Positions 624-8,123 of a DNA stretch of 34,916 bases are shown piece after piece. Source of the stretch: Clostridia bacterium (GTDB taxonomy: Bacteria > Bacillota > Clostridia > Christensenellales > Borkfalkiaceae); assembly GCA_029061155.1 (NCBI GenBank), contig JAIDSQ010000086.1, positions 5,689 to 40,604 of the forward strand, written 5' to 3'. A program made the translations under genes and the position numbers. The notes below the pieces were generated by a model. That model was not told the DNA's origin, searched no databases, and saw nothing but the letters and a program-made list of their open reading frames with translations. Each line of letters begins with the position of its first letter. The stretch's first letter is position 1.

Positions 624-652
624 TTGACGAGTTTAAAATATTATGGTACAAT
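624..652 (+). promoter_or_regulatory. Sigma-A promoter of the release factor-like/helicase operon
   Basis: TTGACG (624-629), a 17-bp spacer, then TACAAT (647-652). It lies just after the terminator and about 50 bp before the start codon at 703. A near-palindrome (673-686, TTAG...CTAA) lies in the leader and could be an operator or RNA structure. No good Shine-Dalgarno precedes the ATG at 703, so translation initiation may be weak or controlled. Confidence 0.75.
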
Positions 653-702: not shown

Positions 703-1710
703 ATGTACGGTATTTACGGCGATATAATAAGCGCGGCGGAAAGGACGCTTGATTGTTTTGATGAAACTAAAGAACTTTTAGAATATCCCGAAGTGCAGGC
801 GGACAAGGCGTATTATCTGTCCGTCCTTGCAAAGTACAATAATCTTAAGCTTTTAAAGGACAAACTTTGCGCGCTTTTATCCGCACTTGAAGAACAAAGG
901 CAAGTTACTGCCCTGCTTTCGGACGCAGGCAGCGACGAGGAACGCGCGACAATTTACGAAGAGATTTCGTCTTTGAAAGTAAAAGCTTCAATGATATCCG
1001 CCGCCCTTTCGGACGCGCTCGCCTGTAAACACGCGGAGGAGCGCGCATATTGCAGGTTTAAATTTAAAGAGGTTTCATCCAGATTCGGTACGGTTTTGTA
1101 TTCTCTTATAAAGTCGTATCTGTTATCGCACGGCGCGAAAATTGAGGACGAAAAGACAGTATGTGCAAAGGGCGGATACGTGCAGGAAATTTCATTCATT
1201 GCGGAGGGGACTAACGTGCTTACGCGCCTTATCCCTCTTACAGGCGCGCACAAGGTCTATATCGCGCAGGCTAAGAGCGAAGAGCTGTGCTTTGCCGTGA
1301 CCCCAGCCGCGAGCGTTGAAAGCATATCCGAAAGCGATTTGAAGATTGATATTTTTCATTCCCACGGCGCAGGCGGTCAGAATATAAACAAGGTCGAAAC
1401 CGCGGTGCGTATAACGCATATACCCACGGGGATAAGCGTAGTTTGTCAGGACGAGCGGTCGCAGCTTAAAAACAAGAAACGCGCTTTGGAAACTATTGAA
1501 AAACGTATAAGAGAGAGGAGCGAACAAGCCGAGAAAAAACGCATTGAGGCAGATATATGCGCGCAGCATTTAAAGAAAAACACGCCTATTTCCTTTGACG
1601 CGGCAGGCAATACCATGACTGATACGCGGCTTAAAGCGTTTACAAAAACCGCCTTTCCGCTTACGGACGAACAGTTCACTTCATATATAAACGGGCTTAA
1701 AGCATTATGA
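703..1710 (+). CDS. Divergent RF1-like peptide chain release factor
   Basis: This 335-residue protein has the class I bacterial release factor layout: an N-terminal helical region (about 1-110), a degraded domain 2, and a well-conserved catalytic domain with GAGGQ (Gln226) followed by an RF1-type ITHIPTG and CQDERSQ segment. The GGQ glutamine contacts the peptidyl-transferase centre and drives peptidyl-tRNA hydrolysis. A PLT tripeptide (178-180) sits where RF1 has its PxT decoding motif, 46 residues before GGQ, against 47 in E. coli RF1. However, the GRIHTS segment that follows PxT in RF1, with its decoding histidine, is replaced by GAHKVYIAQ. The GTGGDEA region of domain 2 and the RxRTYN stretch after GGQ are also lost. 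It is therefore likely a paralogue with altered codon recognition, not the housekeeping RF1. Its stop overlaps the start of the helicase gene. A role in ribosome rescue or unusual termination is inference. Confidence 0.85.
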   Translation: MYGIYGDIISAAERTLDCFDETKELLEYPEVQADKAYYLSVLAKYNNLKLLKDKLCALLSALEEQRQVTALLSDAGSDEERATIYEEISSLKVKASMISAALSDALACKHAEERAYCRFKFKEVSSRFGTVLYSLIKSYLLSHGAKIEDEKTVCAKGGYVQEISFIAEGTNVLTRLIPLTGAHKVYIAQAKSEELCFAVTPAASVESISESDLKIDIFHSHGAGGQNINKVETAVRITHIPTGISVVCQDERSQLKNKKRALETIEKRIRERSEQAEKKRIEADICAQHLKKNTPISFDAAGNTMTDTRLKAFTKTAFPLTDEQFTSYINGLKAL

Positions 1711-4094
1711 TACGCAAAATTACGGCGAACACAAAAAAGATAGCTTTATCTTCAAAATACAGCGTCTATAAGACGGAGGGATTTATTACGCTGACGCGCA
1801 GGATAATTGCGGTGGACGCGTTTATATCCCGTGCCGCGGAAAGTATATTCGGCGCTAATATTTCGCTTTCCGACGGTTGTTATTCCGTTAAAACGGAAGA
1901 CGGACAGTATACCCTTTTCTTCAGCCGTAATAATAGCGACAAAAGGCTTTCGGACGGCGATATAGTATTCTATAAATTTATGAGTGCAACCCCTGCCGAC
2001 AGCGGAACGGACAGAAGGCTGAGCGAATACATTTCCGATAATTCAGAAATTACGCTCGTTCTGAACGAAACGAGTGATAGTGTTGCGCAGGACGATTTGA
2101 CGAGGCTGTATCTTGTGTCGGGTTCGGACGGAATAGTCAACTTCCCTTACCTCAACGAAACGCAGCGGAAAATCGTTGAAACGGAAGACGCGAATATGCT
2201 TGTGCAGGGCGTTGCGGGCAGCGGTAAGACCAACGTGTGCGTTGAAAAAATTGTATATTGCGCCTGCCGGAATTACCGTGGCGCGGTGTTGTACACTACC
2301 TTTTCACGCGGACTTCTGACAGAAACGCGCAGCCGCGTGGAACTGTTTTCAAAAAATATAGACACATTCGTCAGCGCATATGAAGGGGGTAACGTTGTTT
2401 TCCTTGACGATAACCATAAAAAGGCTGTGGAAAACAAGCTGGGTATTCTGTTTTCGGTTGACGAAGACGGGGAAATTATTTCCGCTTTGAGACGCATTTC
2501 CGCCTTTCTGAAAGATAAGGTTGACTACTGTCTGATAGAGGATATATACGCCCGAACGTCTGAAACAAAGCGCGTGGCGGGTGAAAGCGTATTCTTGCAC
2601 GAGTATTTAGGGCAGGGTAAAAATTACCGCCTTTCGGGCGCGCTGGAAAGGATAAAACACATCGCGCCCGAGATAATATACAAAGAGATTTACGGAATGA
2701 TTTTCGGCAAGTACGAACTTGATTCGCCGCAGGATATGATGGGACGTGAGGAGTATGCCGAGGACAGAAAGGACAGCTTTACGCGGCGCGAGTGCGACGT
2801 TATTTATACGGTTGCTTTGGACTACGCAGAATTTTTAAAAAAGCACGGTTATACCGACAACAACATTATGAGCCGTGAAATTTTAAGTAAAGTTTCCGCG
2901 CCTAAATATTCCGTGGGAGTTATAGACGAGGCGCAGGACTTCACGCAGATCAATCTGTGCCTTATAAAAAAGCTGTGCCGAAAGCTGTTCTGCGTGGGCG
3001 ACGCATTGCAGATGATTAATCCGTCGTACTTCAATTTCGGGTATTTAAAGCGCCTGATGTACGGCGATATTACGGGCGTGAATGAGCTCAGACACAATTA
3101 CCGCAGTACGGCGACGATAGAGAAAATTGCCGAAAAGCTGGGCGAAATGAATATGCAGAGGTTCGGCACCCACAGTTTCGTTTTAAAGGGTGAAAGCGTT
3201 CCTTCACCGCTGCCGTCCGCGGCGGTATTGGTAAAAGATAAAAACTTTGTCTACTCTCTCGGTGAAAAGAGATTTGAAAACGTAACCGTCGTCGTAGCAT
3301 CGCAGAAGAAGAAAGAAAAGCTTAAAAAAGTTCTGGGTAAGACGGAAATTCTGACCATAGCCGAGGCAAAAGGTTTGGAACGTAATACCGTAATACTTGC
3401 GGACGTTTTAAGCGACAACGCCGATAAGTGGCGGTATCTGCACAATATGTCGCTGAACAGAAAAACCGCCGACGAAAATTCTGTTTTCAGGTACTACTTC
3501 AACCTGTTTTATGTTGGAATTTCGCGTGCAAAACAGTATCTGTTCGTTGTCGAGTCCGACTATCCCGAAACGTTCAACCCGCTGTTTAACGAGTGTTTCG
3601 AGCGGCGCAATAAAGACGGCGCGCTCAGTCTTTTAAAGGATATAGCGGGCAGAATAGAGATTGACGACGACGAGTTCATCGAGCGAATTGAAAAGTTCTG
3701 TTCGCTTGAACAGTACGAAAATGCGAAAAGCACCGCAGACAGATTATCTTCCGACGAACTCCGCGCAAAGCAGCTTGCGTACATATCAGTCCATGAAAAG
3801 TACTTGCGCTACGGAAAAATCCGCGACGCGGGTATAGAGTACTGGCGGCAGGGTATGGACGCTGAGGCGCGCGAAATGTTCATCCGCTCGGGCGATGAGA
3901 AACTGTTTCCCCTTATGGACGCATGCCTTAAGGGCGGCGGCGTGCTCGACCCCGAAATCGTACGGTTCTATCCCTTGGTTGAGGATAACGACGTGGCGAA
4001 GAAATTGATACTTGAAACACTCGATAAAGATTGCAGCGAAATAGCGGCGAACTTAAAATTAGCAAACGCTAAAATGAAGAGGAAAAGACAATGA
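1707..4094 (+). CDS. SF1 (UvrD/Rep-like) helicase with unrecognised N- and C-terminal regions
   Basis: This 795-residue protein carries the full set of superfamily 1 helicase motifs: a Q-motif-like LNETQRKIV (149-157), Walker A GVAGSGKT (168-175), Walker B DEAQD (407-411), motif III GDALQ (431-435), LRHNYRS (461-467), AEAKGLE (552-558) and YVGISRAK (602-609). It should be an active ATP-dependent DNA or RNA translocase. Residues 1-145 match nothing I recognise. The last 180 or so are helical and rich in charged residues, possibly TPR-like. The region between Walker A and Walker B is about 230 residues, as in UvrD-type enzymes. The start codon overlaps the release factor stop (ATGA), which implies translational coupling and a shared task. 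The DEAQD form is typical of DNA helicases, but pairing with a release factor also allows RNA as a substrate. It is clearly not the housekeeping PcrA or UvrD, which are usually shorter. Confidence 0.85.
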   Translation: MIRKITANTKKIALSSKYSVYKTEGFITLTRRIIAVDAFISRAAESIFGANISLSDGCYSVKTEDGQYTLFFSRNNSDKRLSDGDIVFYKFMSATPADSGTDRRLSEYISDNSEITLVLNETSDSVAQDDLTRLYLVSGSDGIVNFPYLNETQRKIVETEDANMLVQGVAGSGKTNVCVEKIVYCACRNYRGAVLYTTFSRGLLTETRSRVELFSKNIDTFVSAYEGGNVVFLDDNHKKAVENKLGILFSVDEDGEIISALRRISAFLKDKVDYCLIEDIYARTSETKRVAGESVFLHEYLGQGKNYRLSGALERIKHIAPEIIYKEIYGMIFGKYELDSPQDMMGREEYAEDRKDSFTRRECDVIYTVALDYAEFLKKHGYTDNNIMSREILSKVSAPKYSVGVIDEAQDFTQINLCLIKKLCRKLFCVGDALQMINPSYFNFGYLKRLMYGDITGVNELRHNYRSTATIEKIAEKLGEMNMQRFGTHSFVLKGESVPSPLPSAAVLVKDKNFVYSLGEKRFENVTVVVASQKKKEKLKKVLGKTEILTIAEAKGLERNTVILADVLSDNADKWRYLHNMSLNRKTADENSVFRYYFNLFYVGISRAKQYLFVVESDYPETFNPLFNECFERRNKDGALSLLKDIAGRIEIDDDEFIERIEKFCSLEQYENAKSTADRLSSDELRAKQLAYISVHEKYLRYGKIRDAGIEYWRQGMDAEAREMFIRSGDEKLFPLMDACLKGGGVLDPEIVRFYPLVEDNDVAKKLILETLDKDCSEIAANLKLANAKMKRKRQ

Positions 4095-4807
4095 GCGAAA
4101 ATTCGATAAAAGAACTTATAGACAGCTTTATAGCATACCGCAATCTGATTGCGCCCTTGCAGGAAAGTTTACACAATGTAAGCAAGACGTATGAGGAGAT
4201 TAAAAGCGACCTTGAAAACCTGACGAAAAGTTTTTCCGGCAACGCCGCAACCCAGCTTGAAAAGGTTCACGCGACAATCAACGCGCAGGCAAAGAGCGGG
4301 CAGGAGCTTGGCAGAAGAATTGAAGAATACGCCGCCTCGGGAACGAAGTACGCGCAGGCGGTGAAGGATATGTCCTCGCGCTTTTCCGAGGTCGTGGAAA
4401 GGATTGATTCGCTCAGTGAAATAGAGAGAACGGCCCAAAACCAGCTTGCGCGAATCGATACGCTGATAGCCGAAAAACGCTCGTCTTACAACCTCAAGGA
4501 ATTGCAGAAGTCGCTTGACGGCTACAACACCAACGTTGAAAAAATAAGCGCGTTTATCAATAAGGACATTGCCTCCGTTCTCAAAGAAAACGCGGACAAA
4601 ATAGAAACTATCCGCAAGGAAAACGAGCAGTTGTCGGCGGCGGTCGTCCAGCAGGGCAAGGATATTGCTACGCTTATTTCAGAGTTTTCCAACACCTCCG
4701 CGCTTTTGAAAAAGTTAGTCGAAGGCAGTTCGGTCAACGAGGAATATCTATTCGACGCGTTCGATAAATGGGCGGCTGACAGAAAGGTAAAAATTAAGAA
4801 AAAATAA
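4091..4807 (+). CDS. Coiled-coil protein of the release factor/helicase operon
   Basis: This 238-residue protein is almost entirely predicted helix. It is rich in Glu, Lys, Ser, Ala and Leu with heptad-like spacing, for example around 90-125 and 150-200. There is no signal peptide, membrane segment, cysteine motif or enzymatic signature. The ending is very basic (DRKVKIKKK), which might contact nucleic acid or ribosomes. It overlaps the helicase stop by ATGA. It superficially resembles SMC-like or chemoreceptor-type coiled coils, but no family can be named. I infer a structural or adaptor subunit, perhaps linking the cytoplasmic helicase and release factor to the membrane protein encoded next. 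Confidence 0.75.
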   Translation: MSENSIKELIDSFIAYRNLIAPLQESLHNVSKTYEEIKSDLENLTKSFSGNAATQLEKVHATINAQAKSGQELGRRIEEYAASGTKYAQAVKDMSSRFSEVVERIDSLSEIERTAQNQLARIDTLIAEKRSSYNLKELQKSLDGYNTNVEKISAFINKDIASVLKENADKIETIRKENEQLSAAVVQQGKDIATLISEFSNTSALLKKLVEGSSVNEEYLFDAFDKWAADRKVKIKKK

Positions 4808-4822
4808 AATTGCTTAAGGGAT

Positions 4823-7102
4823 ATGGCGCAACCAATTGAAGAAAGCTTGTTTCAGGCTATAAAAAAAGACGATATAAAAGCGTTTGCAGCTTTAATGCAA
4901 AAAGCCCGGTGCGGTGCCTGCCGTCTGGGCAGATTTCCCGTGTTGTCGCTTATGTATCTGTATAAATCGCGCAGACTGATTTCCGAATACGGGCAAAGCT
5001 TTTTAAAGAATACAAATTTTGAAGTATTGCGCGAGCCTGTGGAAGTTTCAAATACCTTCTCGGCTAAGGCGGGCAAATGCTTAAGACTGTATCTTAACGA
5101 GGTGGTATCCCCCCTTGAAATGCTTTTGATTTTGGACAGAATAAAGCAATTGAAGGGCATATATCCCTTAACGAAACCCTCTGCGGACGTTAAAAGACGG
5201 CTTAAATCGATTTATTGGATAAAGTATTCGCTGAATGTCAAATTTGAGGGCGACGACATCATTTTAGATAAAAGACCTTTGAGCTACCGCGAAAAGAAGA
5301 AAATAGCAACCGTATGTCTCAGCTCGGTTTTAGCTGTCTGCGTTGCCGTCGGCGCGCCTGTTACCACGGTTGCGCTTATACCCAAACCAGTCGAGGGCGA
5401 GGTTAAAAAACTTAGCCAGATAGACTTTGGCGCAGCCAAGGAATATATCATTAAACGCGACATAGTCCTGCCCGAAAATTATCAAGTTGAAAAAGTCAAC
5501 TGCAAAATTACGGGCGAAGGGCACAAGCTGACTTTAGGCAAGGGAGCAACGCTCGGCGCGCTTAGCGGCCATATATCAGATCTGACAATAGAAAGTTCGG
5601 GGGACGCGGTATTTACTACCGTCTCCGAAAATGCGACTATTAAAAACGTTACGGTAAACGTAAGCGCGGATGTCACGACAACGGAACAGAATGCGCTGGT
5701 CGCGGTAACCAACTACGGTACGCTTGACGGCGTTACCGTGAACATAAGCGGAAAGCTAAGCGCGCTTTCTTCTTCGTCGGAAACCGCCGGCGAGCTTAAT
5801 TTCGGCGGAATAGTTCAAAGTAACAATTATAAGTATAACACTAACGGCGGAACTATAAAAAACTGTACGGTCAATTTTGCGCAGTTTGAACTTGTCGGAG
5901 AGGCAAGCGCGAACGCCTCGTTCGGCGGTATCGCGGGCGTCAACAACGGATATTTACAGGACTGCACCGTAACAGGTGAAATTAGCGGAGATACTTTTGA
6001 TATGGCGGGCGTGTGCGCAGTCAACAACGGTATGCTTGAAGACAACGTGAACGAGGCAAACCTTTATCAGAAGTCTTCCGACAGCGGTTGGAACCCTATT
6101 ATCGGCGGAATAGTTATAAGCAACACGTACGCCGTTGAAAACTGTGAAAACAGAGGAAATATCCGCGCCGTTTCGGACTGCGGACAGTTCGAGGTGCAGG
6201 AGGATTTCGAGCCTACCGTTTCGGCGGCGGGAATAGCTTATTTAAGCAGGGGTTCGTCAACGAGCCCGTATATTAAAAACTGCACAAATTCTGGAAAGGT
6301 TGAGTGTAAGGCAGAGTACAGGAACGTTTATGCGGCGGGCGTATGTCTGTCCACGAGCGGCGGCGTCGACGGCTGTAAAAACAGCGGCGACGTCACGGCG
6401 GAGGCTGGCAATGACTGTGGAACATATGCCGGCGGAATTTGCACGATAGCTTACGCGAATATAGACAAGTGCGTGAACGAGGGCGGTATTTCTGCGGCGG
6501 GCAGCGGCACTGCGTACGTCGGGGGGATTTCCGCACATACGCGTGTGATTATTTCAAACTGTCTGTCAAGCGGTGATATTACGGTCACGGCGAAAGATGT
6601 CTACGCGGGCGGAATATTGGGTTTCAGCGAAATTGTAAGTTACTACTACATATATTTCGGTGAGGTCGACTACTGTATAAGCCAAAGCAAAATTAAAGTA
6701 ACCGCAACGGGCGAGACTCCCGCATATGTCGGAGGTATCGCAGGTTATTTGCCCGAGAGGCGATTCAACAGTGTATACGGCGGCTCGGTTACCAACAGTT
6801 ATTTTACCGGCGGGTTTGAAACTGAAAATTCCTATTGCGGAAATATTGTCGGCGTTTGCGGCGCGAATATATACGAAAATAATTCTTATATCGCTATTTC
6901 TGGTATGACAGAAATGGAATTTCATAATTTCGAGGGCAACTATTATTCGGGTAACGGCTTAACCGCGTTCGGCAAGACAATATCGGAAGACGGAAGTTTT
7001 ACTTCTGTTGAAGACAAGGGCGCGACTTCCGCAACAATCGAAGATATAAAAAATTCCGAAAATTATAAACTTATTTTAAGCGCGCTTAAAATTGAAAAAT
7101 AG
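4823..7102 (+). CDS. Membrane-anchored protein with ankyrin-like N-terminus and GLUG-type beta-helix ectodomain
   Basis: The 759 residues fall into three parts. Residues 1-155 are cytoplasmic and helical; the beginning (SLFQAIKKDDIKAFAALMQ) looks ankyrin-like. One membrane helix lies at about 161-186 after a KKK stop, so the remainder should be outside. From about 270 onward there are at least ten degenerate repeats with a GGI(A/V)...N...G.(I/V)..C...G pattern (for example FGGIAGVNNGYLQDCTVTG), as in GLUG repeats of right-handed beta-helix surface proteins. Many repeats carry a cysteine at the same point. There is no sortase signal. It starts 15 bp after the coiled-coil gene, with an AAGGG only 2 bp before the ATG. 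It completes the operon and could display or sense something outside while contacting the helicase complex inside; that link is inference. Confidence 0.8.
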   Translation: MAQPIEESLFQAIKKDDIKAFAALMQKARCGACRLGRFPVLSLMYLYKSRRLISEYGQSFLKNTNFEVLREPVEVSNTFSAKAGKCLRLYLNEVVSPLEMLLILDRIKQLKGIYPLTKPSADVKRRLKSIYWIKYSLNVKFEGDDIILDKRPLSYREKKKIATVCLSSVLAVCVAVGAPVTTVALIPKPVEGEVKKLSQIDFGAAKEYIIKRDIVLPENYQVEKVNCKITGEGHKLTLGKGATLGALSGHISDLTIESSGDAVFTTVSENATIKNVTVNVSADVTTTEQNALVAVTNYGTLDGVTVNISGKLSALSSSSETAGELNFGGIVQSNNYKYNTNGGTIKNCTVNFAQFELVGEASANASFGGIAGVNNGYLQDCTVTGEISGDTFDMAGVCAVNNGMLEDNVNEANLYQKSSDSGWNPIIGGIVISNTYAVENCENRGNIRAVSDCGQFEVQEDFEPTVSAAGIAYLSRGSSTSPYIKNCTNSGKVECKAEYRNVYAAGVCLSTSGGVDGCKNSGDVTAEAGNDCGTYAGGICTIAYANIDKCVNEGGISAAGSGTAYVGGISAHTRVIISNCLSSGDITVTAKDVYAGGILGFSEIVSYYYIYFGEVDYCISQSKIKVTATGETPAYVGGIAGYLPERRFNSVYGGSVTNSYFTGGFETENSYCGNIVGVCGANIYENNSYIAISGMTEMEFHNFEGNYYSGNGLTAFGKTISEDGSFTSVEDKGATSATIEDIKNSENYKLILSALKIEK

Positions 7103-7187: not shown

Positions 7188-8123
7188 TTGAAATACTTTG
7201 TAATACATTCAGGAATAGACTGGAAAGAACAAGTTGAGAATCTTGTAAACGAATGGACAAAGATGTATGAGGGCGCAAATTTTATTGTATTAAACGGCAG
7301 TCAATCGAATTGGATAGATGATGCTACGGCTAAAATCAGACAATCCGAAAAAGTTATATATGTCGTAGGGAAAGAGTCATATAAAAGTGAAAACATTGAT
7401 AAGGAAATAGCAATAGCTATTAAGGAAAAAAAGCCTATATACATTTATAAATTAAACGATAGCTATTTATTGAATAAGTCTTTGGAACCGTTTATTGTAA
7501 ATCAAAATGTCGAGCCGGGGGATGTTGATGGTGAAATAATATTCCGAAAAGGGAAATCATTTGTTACGGAAATTAACAGTAAAAATATTGATTCTCACAT
7601 TACGAGAGATGTAACTGATATAATGAAATATCTTCCTGCAAAAAATTTTACAGATGATAAAACACTTTTCGACCAATATAAAATGTTCGTTGAAACGTCG
7701 GAAGAGCTGGTGAAAAGAAAGCAATCGGTTAATAGCTTTTATGTTACGTTAAACTCTGTTATTTTAGGCGCGATAATATCAATTATGTGCGCAATAAATG
7801 ATTTGCCCATATTGTTTGGTTTAGTAAAGGTCAGTTTGATAATATCGGTTTTTACTTCATTAGTTGGTTTAATAGTGTGTTTTTCCTGGATTTCTATTTT
7901 AAATTCTTATGCTGATTTAAATGCAAGCAAAATGAAAATTATAGAGTTTATCGAACATCATCTTGCTGTTAACTTGTATGAAACTGAATGGTCGGTAATG
8001 ACACAGAAAGTTGGGAAAAAGAAGTATAAATCTTTTAGCAAAAAAGAAAGGTTTGTAGCAATTTTATTTGCGGCACTATATGTTATAATAGTTATCGTAG
8101 GTATTTTCTTAGCCTGTGTTTAA
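7188..8123 (+). CDS. TIR-like (MTH538/DUF1863-type) domain fused to a multi-pass membrane domain
   Basis: The start is TTG, supported by AGGAGAGG five bases upstream. Residues 1-100 follow the TIR-like/flavodoxin-like pattern: MKYFVIHSG first strand, W..DA..KI..SE turning into the VIYVVG strand, then SYKSENIDKEIAIAIK and the KPIYIYK strand. Glu73 (in DKEI) sits where TIR NADases place their catalytic Glu. Residues 165-265 carry the pattern RKQ.VNSFYVTLN, two membrane helices (about 183-204 and 210-236), then SYADLN..K, followed by an EW motif. This resembles RipA-family/SLATT-like membrane proteins found with defence genes. A third membrane helix lies at about 289-309. The gene is visibly AT-rich (roughly one-third GC) against its neighbours and stands alone with its own promoter and terminator, which suggests horizontal transfer. 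I infer an anti-phage or stress effector that perforates the membrane or consumes NAD. The family call is from memory of motifs. Confidence 0.7.
   Translation: MKYFVIHSGIDWKEQVENLVNEWTKMYEGANFIVLNGSQSNWIDDATAKIRQSEKVIYVVGKESYKSENIDKEIAIAIKEKKPIYIYKLNDSYLLNKSLEPFIVNQNVEPGDVDGEIIFRKGKSFVTEINSKNIDSHITRDVTDIMKYLPAKNFTDDKTLFDQYKMFVETSEELVKRKQSVNSFYVTLNSVILGAIISIMCAINDLPILFGLVKVSLIISVFTSLVGLIVCFSWISILNSYADLNASKMKIIEFIEHHLAVNLYETEWSVMTQKVGKKKYKSFSKKERFVAILFAALYVIIVIVGIFLACV

What the first reader, a model, noticed from the sequence alone, without database searches (positions are those of the whole stretch)
703..7102. Operon pairing a divergent release factor with an SF1 helicase, a coiled-coil protein and a GLUG membrane protein
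Four genes in one unit, the first three joined by ATGA overlaps, combine a peptidyl-tRNA hydrolase-type factor with an ATP-driven nucleic acid translocase, a coiled coil and a transmembrane beta-helix protein. I know of no described bacterial system with this composition. Release factor paralogues next to helicases would fit rescue of stalled ribosomes, decay of aberrant mRNA (loosely like Upf1 with eRF1 in eukaryotes), or a defence system that senses translation failure. The sequence shows the overlaps and motifs; the function is inference.
Basis: partly seen in the sequence, partly recalled or inferred. Interest (0 to 1): 0.8.

Follow-up and report, generated by a model that had tools for sequence, protein, structure and literature searches.

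The report
Codon-blind release factor operon with helicase
A set of four neighbouring genes, passed between Clostridia, joins a release factor that has lost its stop-codon reader to a motor protein, a coiled coil and a membrane protein, and looks like a new kind of machine for freeing stuck ribosomes.

Summary
In detail: four genes at 703-7102, two ATGA overlaps, then a 15-nt gap. RF1 and RF2 lie elsewhere in the genome, so the RF-like gene is a third paralogue. The unit is conserved: of 61 relatives the same 4 have the helicase and a third full-length RF; in 80 loci the gene order is kept wherever contigs reach, with the RF upstream in 73 of 77 testable. It occurs in 63 of 396 genomes of the order; class and phylum draws found no others. 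It moves between families: helicase 82-84% identical where RF1 is 50-56%. 70 of 70 complete RF-like proteins keep GGQ; none keeps the PxT/SPF stop-reading motif (27 of 27 canonical ones do). In 42 of 70 loci a promoter ends 6 nt before the RF start, predicting a leaderless mRNA; the window copy is an exception. Best reading: a mobile, codon-independent ribosome-rescue module, working like PrfH-RtcB2 with other partners. Against: in one genus 6 of 12 genomes have no detectable RF-like gene. Rescue versus defence is open; the Upf1 analogy is weak.

The parts
624..652 (+). promoter-like site TTGACG-17-TACAAT with TG before the -10; in 42 of 70 related loci such a site ends 6 nt before the RF start, here a 50-nt leader follows
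703..1710 (+). RF-like protein: third class-I release factor paralogue, GGQ kept, stop-codon recognition motif (PxT/SPF) lost
1707..4094 (+). SF1 helicase (UvrD/HelD-like) with an unassigned mixed alpha/beta N-terminal part (about 1-145) and a helical C-terminal tail (about 636-795)
4091..4807 (+). coiled-coil protein, near-constant length (236-244 aa in 75 orthologues), conserved C-terminal D.WA..R....K
4823..7102 (+). membrane protein: about 155-aa N-terminal domain predicted inside, TM-like stretch, repetitive GLUG-type part predicted outside

Best explanation
A horizontally moving, self-contained ribosome-rescue module. SHOWN by sequence: a third RF paralogue keeps the GGQ peptidyl-tRNA hydrolase domain but has lost the stop-codon reading motif; it is inherited together with an SF1 ATPase with intact Walker motifs, a coiled coil and a membrane protein. 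INFERRED: the RF-like protein enters ribosomes that stand without a readable stop codon (truncated mRNA, blocked or damaged A site) and frees the nascent chain regardless of codon. The helicase, bridged by the coiled coil, replaces codon recognition as the recruiting step by moving on the mRNA or clearing it, or by clearing a blocking RNA polymerase. The membrane protein tethers the complex at the envelope and its outer part may sense attack. A leaderless RF mRNA (predicted in 42 of 70 copies, not in the window's) would still be translated by 70S ribosomes when Shine-Dalgarno-dependent initiation fails.
For: Third RF besides RF1 and RF2. GGQ in 70 of 70 complete proteins; PxT/SPF in 0 of 70 against 27 of 27 canonical; hairpin 12-22 aa against 24; alpha-5 GG in 17 of 70 against 27 of 27. 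RF model pLDDT 92, nearest solved folds RF1/RF2, PrfH on a damaged ribosome at rank 50. Walker A and DExQD in 75 of 75 helicases. RF upstream in 73 of 77 testable loci (62 of 71 measured gaps at most 30 nt), inverted downstream in L081. In G284, G263, G080 and G102 a loopless RF lies elsewhere in the genome, so co-occurrence is not only linkage. 4 of 61 relatives have the helicase, the same 4 a third full-length RF (Fisher p 2e-6). Distances of the four proteins correlate at 0.89-0.95 (Pearson; Spearman 0.73-0.89) over 58 loci. Added to, not instead of, trans-translation and RQC: SmpB in 28 of 31 helicase-bearing and 27 of 28 helicase-free genomes, NFACT/RqcH in 30 of 31 and 27 of 28. Promoter 6 nt before the RF ATG in 42 of 70; non-redundant 21 of 40 (5-8 nt) against 8 of 201 flanking genes, shuffles mean 0.85, maximum 4.
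Against: No biochemistry; no complex could be predicted. Genus g46 breaks the rule: 12 helicase-bearing genomes, RF unlinked in the two fetched (G080, G102), and a candidate RF-like gene in only 6 of 12 (genomes 71-97% complete). In L079 no RF was found next door and its genome was not searched. The RF is the fastest-evolving of the four (mean tree distance 2.71; membrane protein N-terminus 2.2, helicase 1.48, coiled coil 1.39). A V[GA].SRA helicase motif pattern is missed by 8 of 75. UvrD-type helicases usually act on DNA (recalled). The window copy itself has a 50-nt leader, and 28 of 70 loci lack the site at 6 nt. Patchiness and transfer fit defence as well as rescue.
Confidence: 0.55

Rival explanations
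1. Anti-phage or anti-toxin defence: the membrane protein or helicase senses an attack, and the RF-like protein acts as an effector that aborts translation (dumping unfinished chains) or mends the consequences of a ribosome-targeting weapon.
For: Patchy within one genus (2 of 37 genus members), transfer between families, membrane protein of variable length (605-1082 aa), a second RF-like 5' end beside a serine recombinase in the same genome; the helicase matches GajB models (best E 6e-20), as other UvrD-type helicases may (inference). PrfH-RtcB2, the nearest precedent, protects against colicin E3 (PMC9223846, abstract read).
Against: Of 137 flanking proteins (nearest two per side, 120-900 aa, from 41 non-redundant loci) few match PADLOC at E 1e-15: 18 families, none by more than 3 proteins (no background rate measured); the 25 commonest of 120 Pfam families there are mostly metabolic, transport and regulatory. 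No confirmed relative in the viral-contig scan or in phages; 132 plasmid records match, none over 80% of the query, the best-ranked at 27% identity.
Confidence: 0.25
2. Transcription-coupled clearance: the helicase works like HelD, removing RNA polymerase, while the RF-like protein frees the ribosome stuck behind it; the coiled coil stands in for a HelD arm.
For: HelD on RNA polymerase is the top Foldseek match (8qn8, E 4.5e-13), next to UvrD; HelD is also among NCBIfam and PDB sequence hits.
Against: The HelD model scores 32 bits against a cut-off of 419; in the 50 rows shown TM-scores are 0.39 or less of query length, and UvrD is as close.
Confidence: 0.12
3. The RF-like protein reads an unusual signal with a reshaped loop rather than being codon-blind (as first proposed for RFH).
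For: Proposed for RFH (PMC1586002, passages read), which keeps an SXY motif; the alpha-5 GG is kept in 17 of 70 here.
Against: The hairpin is short and variable (12-22 aa) with no PxT or SPF in 70 of 70; a specific reader should be conserved.
Confidence: 0.06

Closest known systems
PrfH (RFH)-RtcB2 operon
   Same: RF paralogue with altered codon reader and GGQ kept, in a sporadic, horizontally spread operon with a partner enzyme (PMC6514570, passages); PrfH on a damaged ribosome (9mor) is among the fold matches
   Different: PrfH lacks the N-terminal RF domain and keeps an SXY motif with a 3-residue gap (PMC6514570, PMC1586002, passages); here domain 1 is present, the motif is gone, and the partners are helicase, coiled coil and membrane protein, no RNA ligase in the unit
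RF1 (prfA)
   Same: best NCBIfam model (123.6 bits), full domain plan, fold
   Different: far below the family cut-off (423.25), no PxT motif, separate from an RF1+RF2 branch with 99/98 support
ArfB/YaeJ, ICT1, mtRF-R (C12orf65)
   Same: GGQ hydrolases that act without a stop codon (recalled); they match only the GGQ region of the profile
   Different: chains of 108-206 aa matched over short stretches; ArfB model 42 bits against a cut-off of 100
HelD, UvrD/PcrA and GajB helicases
   Same: SF1 UvrD-type core
   Different: NCBIfam cut-offs missed by far; unassigned N-terminal part and helical tail
Upf1 with eRF1 in nonsense-mediated decay
   Same: pairing of a release factor with an SF1 ATPase
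   Different: archaeo-eukaryotic release factors are structurally unrelated to bacterial ones (PMC6514570, abstract in search listing); helicase UvrD-like by sequence

Membership tests
RF1/RF2 | family score over curated cut-off | tested here: not met
   prfA 123.6 of 423.25, prfB 98.8 of 370 bits
RF1/RF2 | PxT or SPF stop-codon reading motif | tested here: not met
   0 of 70 operon RFs, 27 of 27 canonical; 6 of 6 RF2 rows show SPF
RF1/RF2 | GGQ catalytic motif | tested here: met
   70 of 70; the 27 references were picked by having it
PrfH (RFH) | prfH model over cut-off | tested here: not met
   77.3 of 166.65 bits
PrfH (RFH) | operon with RtcB ligase | tested here: not met
   the unit holds none; commonest flanking cluster is in 10 of 80 loci; only the 25 commonest of 120 flanking Pfam families were seen
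ArfB | ArfB model over cut-off | tested here: not met
   42.2 of 100 bits
HelD | HelD model over cut-off | tested here: not met
   32 of 419 bits
HelD | binds RNA polymerase | not testable with these tools
   needs pull-down or a complex model
Gabija (GajA-GajB) | GajA nuclease next to GajB helicase | tested here: not met
   the partners are RF, coiled coil and membrane protein; no GajA hit among the listed PADLOC rows
Ribosome-rescue factor (by function) | peptide release without a stop codon | not testable with these tools
Anti-phage defence system | known defence family or defence-island setting | tested here: inconclusive
   GajB-type helicase hits only; few PADLOC hits in 137 flanking proteins, no background rate

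The most novel reading that the evidence does not exclude
A membrane-tethered bacterial translation-surveillance complex in which an SF1 motor takes over the role of codon recognition for a codon-blind release factor, kept on a leaderless message in most copies so that it can still be made by damaged or unrecycled ribosomes, and traded between Clostridia as a ready-made module against attacks on translation.
Probability: 0.3. Interest if true: 0.92.

Novelty: categorically new. Interest (0 to 1): 0.8.

Why it matters
My paper searches showed no rescue system that couples a release factor to a helicase and a membrane protein. If the RF-like protein works without a stop codon, the module would be a further route, beside trans-translation and RQC, in which a motor and a release factor clear stuck ribosomes, and a further case, beside PrfH, of a release factor rebuilt for emergencies. 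A leaderless message would tie rescue to a kind of initiation reported to survive loss of the 16S rRNA end (PMC12186496, passages), which is directly testable.

Tried and rejected
Member of RF1/RF2, PrfH, ArfB, HelD or Gabija: rejected on scores and partners. Strain-specific oddity: rejected. Replacement for trans-translation or RQC: rejected, SmpB and NFACT are mostly kept; SmpB was not found in the window's own genome (90% complete), nor in G086, G127 and helicase-free G060. Phage or plasmid cargo: no support. The TIR + 8xMP gene at 7188-8123 as a fifth member: nothing like it among the recurrent neighbours listed. Wider taxa: the helicase profile (E 1e-40) and the coiled-coil profile (E 1e-12) found only the window genome in draws of 391 (class), 398 (phylum) and 391 (class) genomes; the two class draws also held order members without it. 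The one genome-contig scan worked from two short peptide patterns of the helicase and kept 80 of 100 relatives, so more distant forms may be missed. PDB search with the membrane protein profile: no hit. Coiled-coil PDB hits are generic. An ankyrin-like look of the membrane protein's N-terminal domain is my impression by eye; no Pfam support. A recombinase scar as source of the window's 50-nt leader: no convincing match. Limits of the promoter count: flanking starts are the first start codon of the longest ORF, so some control starts are misplaced, which lowers both promoter and SD rates there; RF starts were picked by fit to the profile. In the RF tree row L013 was a wrong-frame ORF that I failed to drop; the branch RF1 7 + RF2 6 does not contain it. 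In one search several reference rows were wrong-frame ORFs; redid the count with 27 references (window-genome RF1 plus 26 hits, operon RFs L005, L006, L008 left out). Rows dropped: of 73 loci with an upstream RF, one search used 70 (cut or N-holding ones out) and another 70 (those with under 60 nt upstream out).

Full report
WHAT IS THERE. Four + strand genes at 703-1710, 1707-4094, 4091-4807 and 4823-7102, two ATGA overlaps and a 15-nt gap. Domains: RF-1 and PCRF; UvrD-type SF1 helicase; coiled coil; membrane protein. The genome has two other RF-1 domain genes: RF1 on C168 (PxT present) and a contig-cut RF2 on C29 (SPF present).

IS IT A UNIT. In G007, G059 and G051 the same four genes lie in the same order beside other genes (in G051 the coiled coil was read). 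A scan of one genome per species gave 472 pattern stretches, 100 relatives, of which 80 loci were kept; their titles read Clostridia, Clostridiales, Eubacteriales, Clostridiaceae, Bacillota, Christensenella or plain bacterium. Helicase, coiled coil and membrane protein follow each other wherever the contig reaches. The RF-like gene is upstream on the same strand in 73 of 77 testable loci (L076, L095 and L102 start inside the helicase); L081 has it inverted downstream; L079, L080 and L084 lack it next door (a masked stretch lies upstream in L084). G284 and G263, whose helicase loci have the same profile scores as L080 and L084, carry a loopless RF elsewhere. Gaps: RF-HEL 45 of 71 overlapping, 62 of 71 at most 30 nt, two of 485 and 670 nt; HEL-CC 52 and 71 of 78; CC-membrane 13 and 65 of 74. 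Neighbours beyond the unit do not recur widely: the commonest cluster is in 10 of 80 loci at varying distances. The four proteins' tree distances correlate at 0.89-0.95 in 58 loci; these loci share ancestry, so this shows joint inheritance, not contact.

DISTRIBUTION. 63 of 396 genomes of the order, 17 of 142 genera (E 1e-60); only the window genome in draws of 391 (class) and 398 (phylum) at E 1e-40. In 61 relatives the helicase is in 4, and the same 4 are the only ones with a third full-length RF; G011 shows three RF pieces cut by contig ends. Across 64 helicase-bearing genomes (63 plus G007) a candidate RF-like gene was found in 58; the 6 misses (G207, G219, G230, G241, G272, G292) are all in genus g46, where it is unlinked in the two I fetched. 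I judged candidates in the match tables by number, place and score; the loop itself was inspected in the 70 proteins and in the loci.

TRANSFER. RF1 of the window genome is 50-56% identical to that of six genomes of family f6 (G280, G338, G372, G381, G390, G425), but the helicase is 82-84% and the RF-like protein 68-76% identical to theirs; within the genus (G007) RF1 is 76% and the helicase 81%. So the unit moved between families. In the same genome a short contig (L038) shows the first 31 codons of a second RF-like gene (87%) directly behind a serine recombinase; similarity to most other loci begins within 7 nt before the start codon. It may be a second copy, another strain or contamination (3.6%).

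THE RELEASE FACTOR. GGQ in 70 of 70. The hairpin that carries PxT or SPF is 24 residues in 27 of 27 canonical factors, 12-22 in the 70, and none has the motif; the GG at the tip of alpha-5 is in 17 of 70 against 27 of 27. The model (pLDDT 92, stretches of the GGQ loop under 50) matches RF1/RF2 and, at rank 50, PrfH on a damaged ribosome. That PxT/SPF read the stop codon is from PMC1586002 (passages read).

THE PARTNERS. The helicase keeps Walker A and DExQD in 75 of 75, a GDxxQ motif in 74 and a V[GA].SRA pattern in 67; its sequence hits among solved structures are PcrA, UvrD and HelD; by fold HelD and UvrD/PcrA lead, Ighmbp2 is at rank 5 and Upf1 first at rank 36. Its N-terminal part and helical tail stay unassigned. 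The coiled coil is near constant in length (236-244 aa) and conserved (16 invariant columns in 42 sequences). In the fourth protein the strongest hydrophobic stretch lies near residue 161, positive-inside in 67 of 67; total length varies from 605 to 1082 aa. In 25 of 61 testable loci, all numbered L079 or higher, a small hydrophobic protein (71-114 aa) starts within 43 nt before to 2 nt after the end of the fourth gene; none was found in the loci nearest the window (no chance control).

EXPRESSION. In 42 of 70 loci a sigma-70-type site (score 9 or more of 13) ends exactly 6 nt before the RF start codon, no other distance from 0 to 39 having more than 3; in the non-redundant set 21 of 40 at 5-8 nt, against 8 of 201 flanking ATG genes (Fisher 3e-13) and 0.85 on average (maximum 4) in shuffles; SD-like motifs precede 10 of 70 RFs against 128 of 201 flanking genes. 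Since RNA starts about 7 nt after the -10 (recalled), the message should begin at or beside the ATG. It also holds in 9 of 26 divergent loci, while others there show an SD and a short leader. The window copy has the promoter but a 50-nt leader. That ribosomes lacking the 16S 3' end selectively translate leaderless messages is from PMC12186496 (passages read).

READING. Loss of the codon reader with GGQ kept, an ATP-driven partner, presence beside intact trans-translation and RQC, and transfer as a unit point to codon-independent rescue of ribosomes under an external or occasional insult. PrfH-RtcB2 is the nearest precedent in logic (PMC6514570 passages; PMC9223846 abstract), but no family test is met except the shared GGQ. 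Defence is the main rival. I call the system categorically new for its composition; the RF alone would be a new variant of stop-independent release factors.

Noticed in passing
window 7188-8123 (+): TIR-like (ThsB_TIR E 4e-6) plus 8xMP membrane domain (E 6e-28) protein just downstream; looks like a defence-type effector; not among the recurrent neighbours listed.
   Followed up: partly
L038 (G000:C176), 3-95 and 112-1788, - strand: Serine recombinase directly upstream of the first 31 codons of a second RF-like gene; shared sequence begins at about the RF start codon, so an element boundary may lie there.
   Followed up: partly
upstream of the RF start in loci L040-L117: Promoter-like site ending 6 nt before the ATG in 42 of 70 loci: predicted leaderless mRNA.
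   Followed up: yes
directly after the fourth gene in 25 of 61 loci, all L079 or higher: Small hydrophobic protein, perhaps a fifth member in the divergent clades.
   Followed up: partly
genus g46 (G080, G102 and others): Helicase kept in 12 genomes, RF unlinked in the two fetched and not detected in 6 of 12.
   Followed up: partly
G000: No SmpB found in the window's own genome (90% complete), though 55 of 59 genomes searched have it.
   Followed up: no
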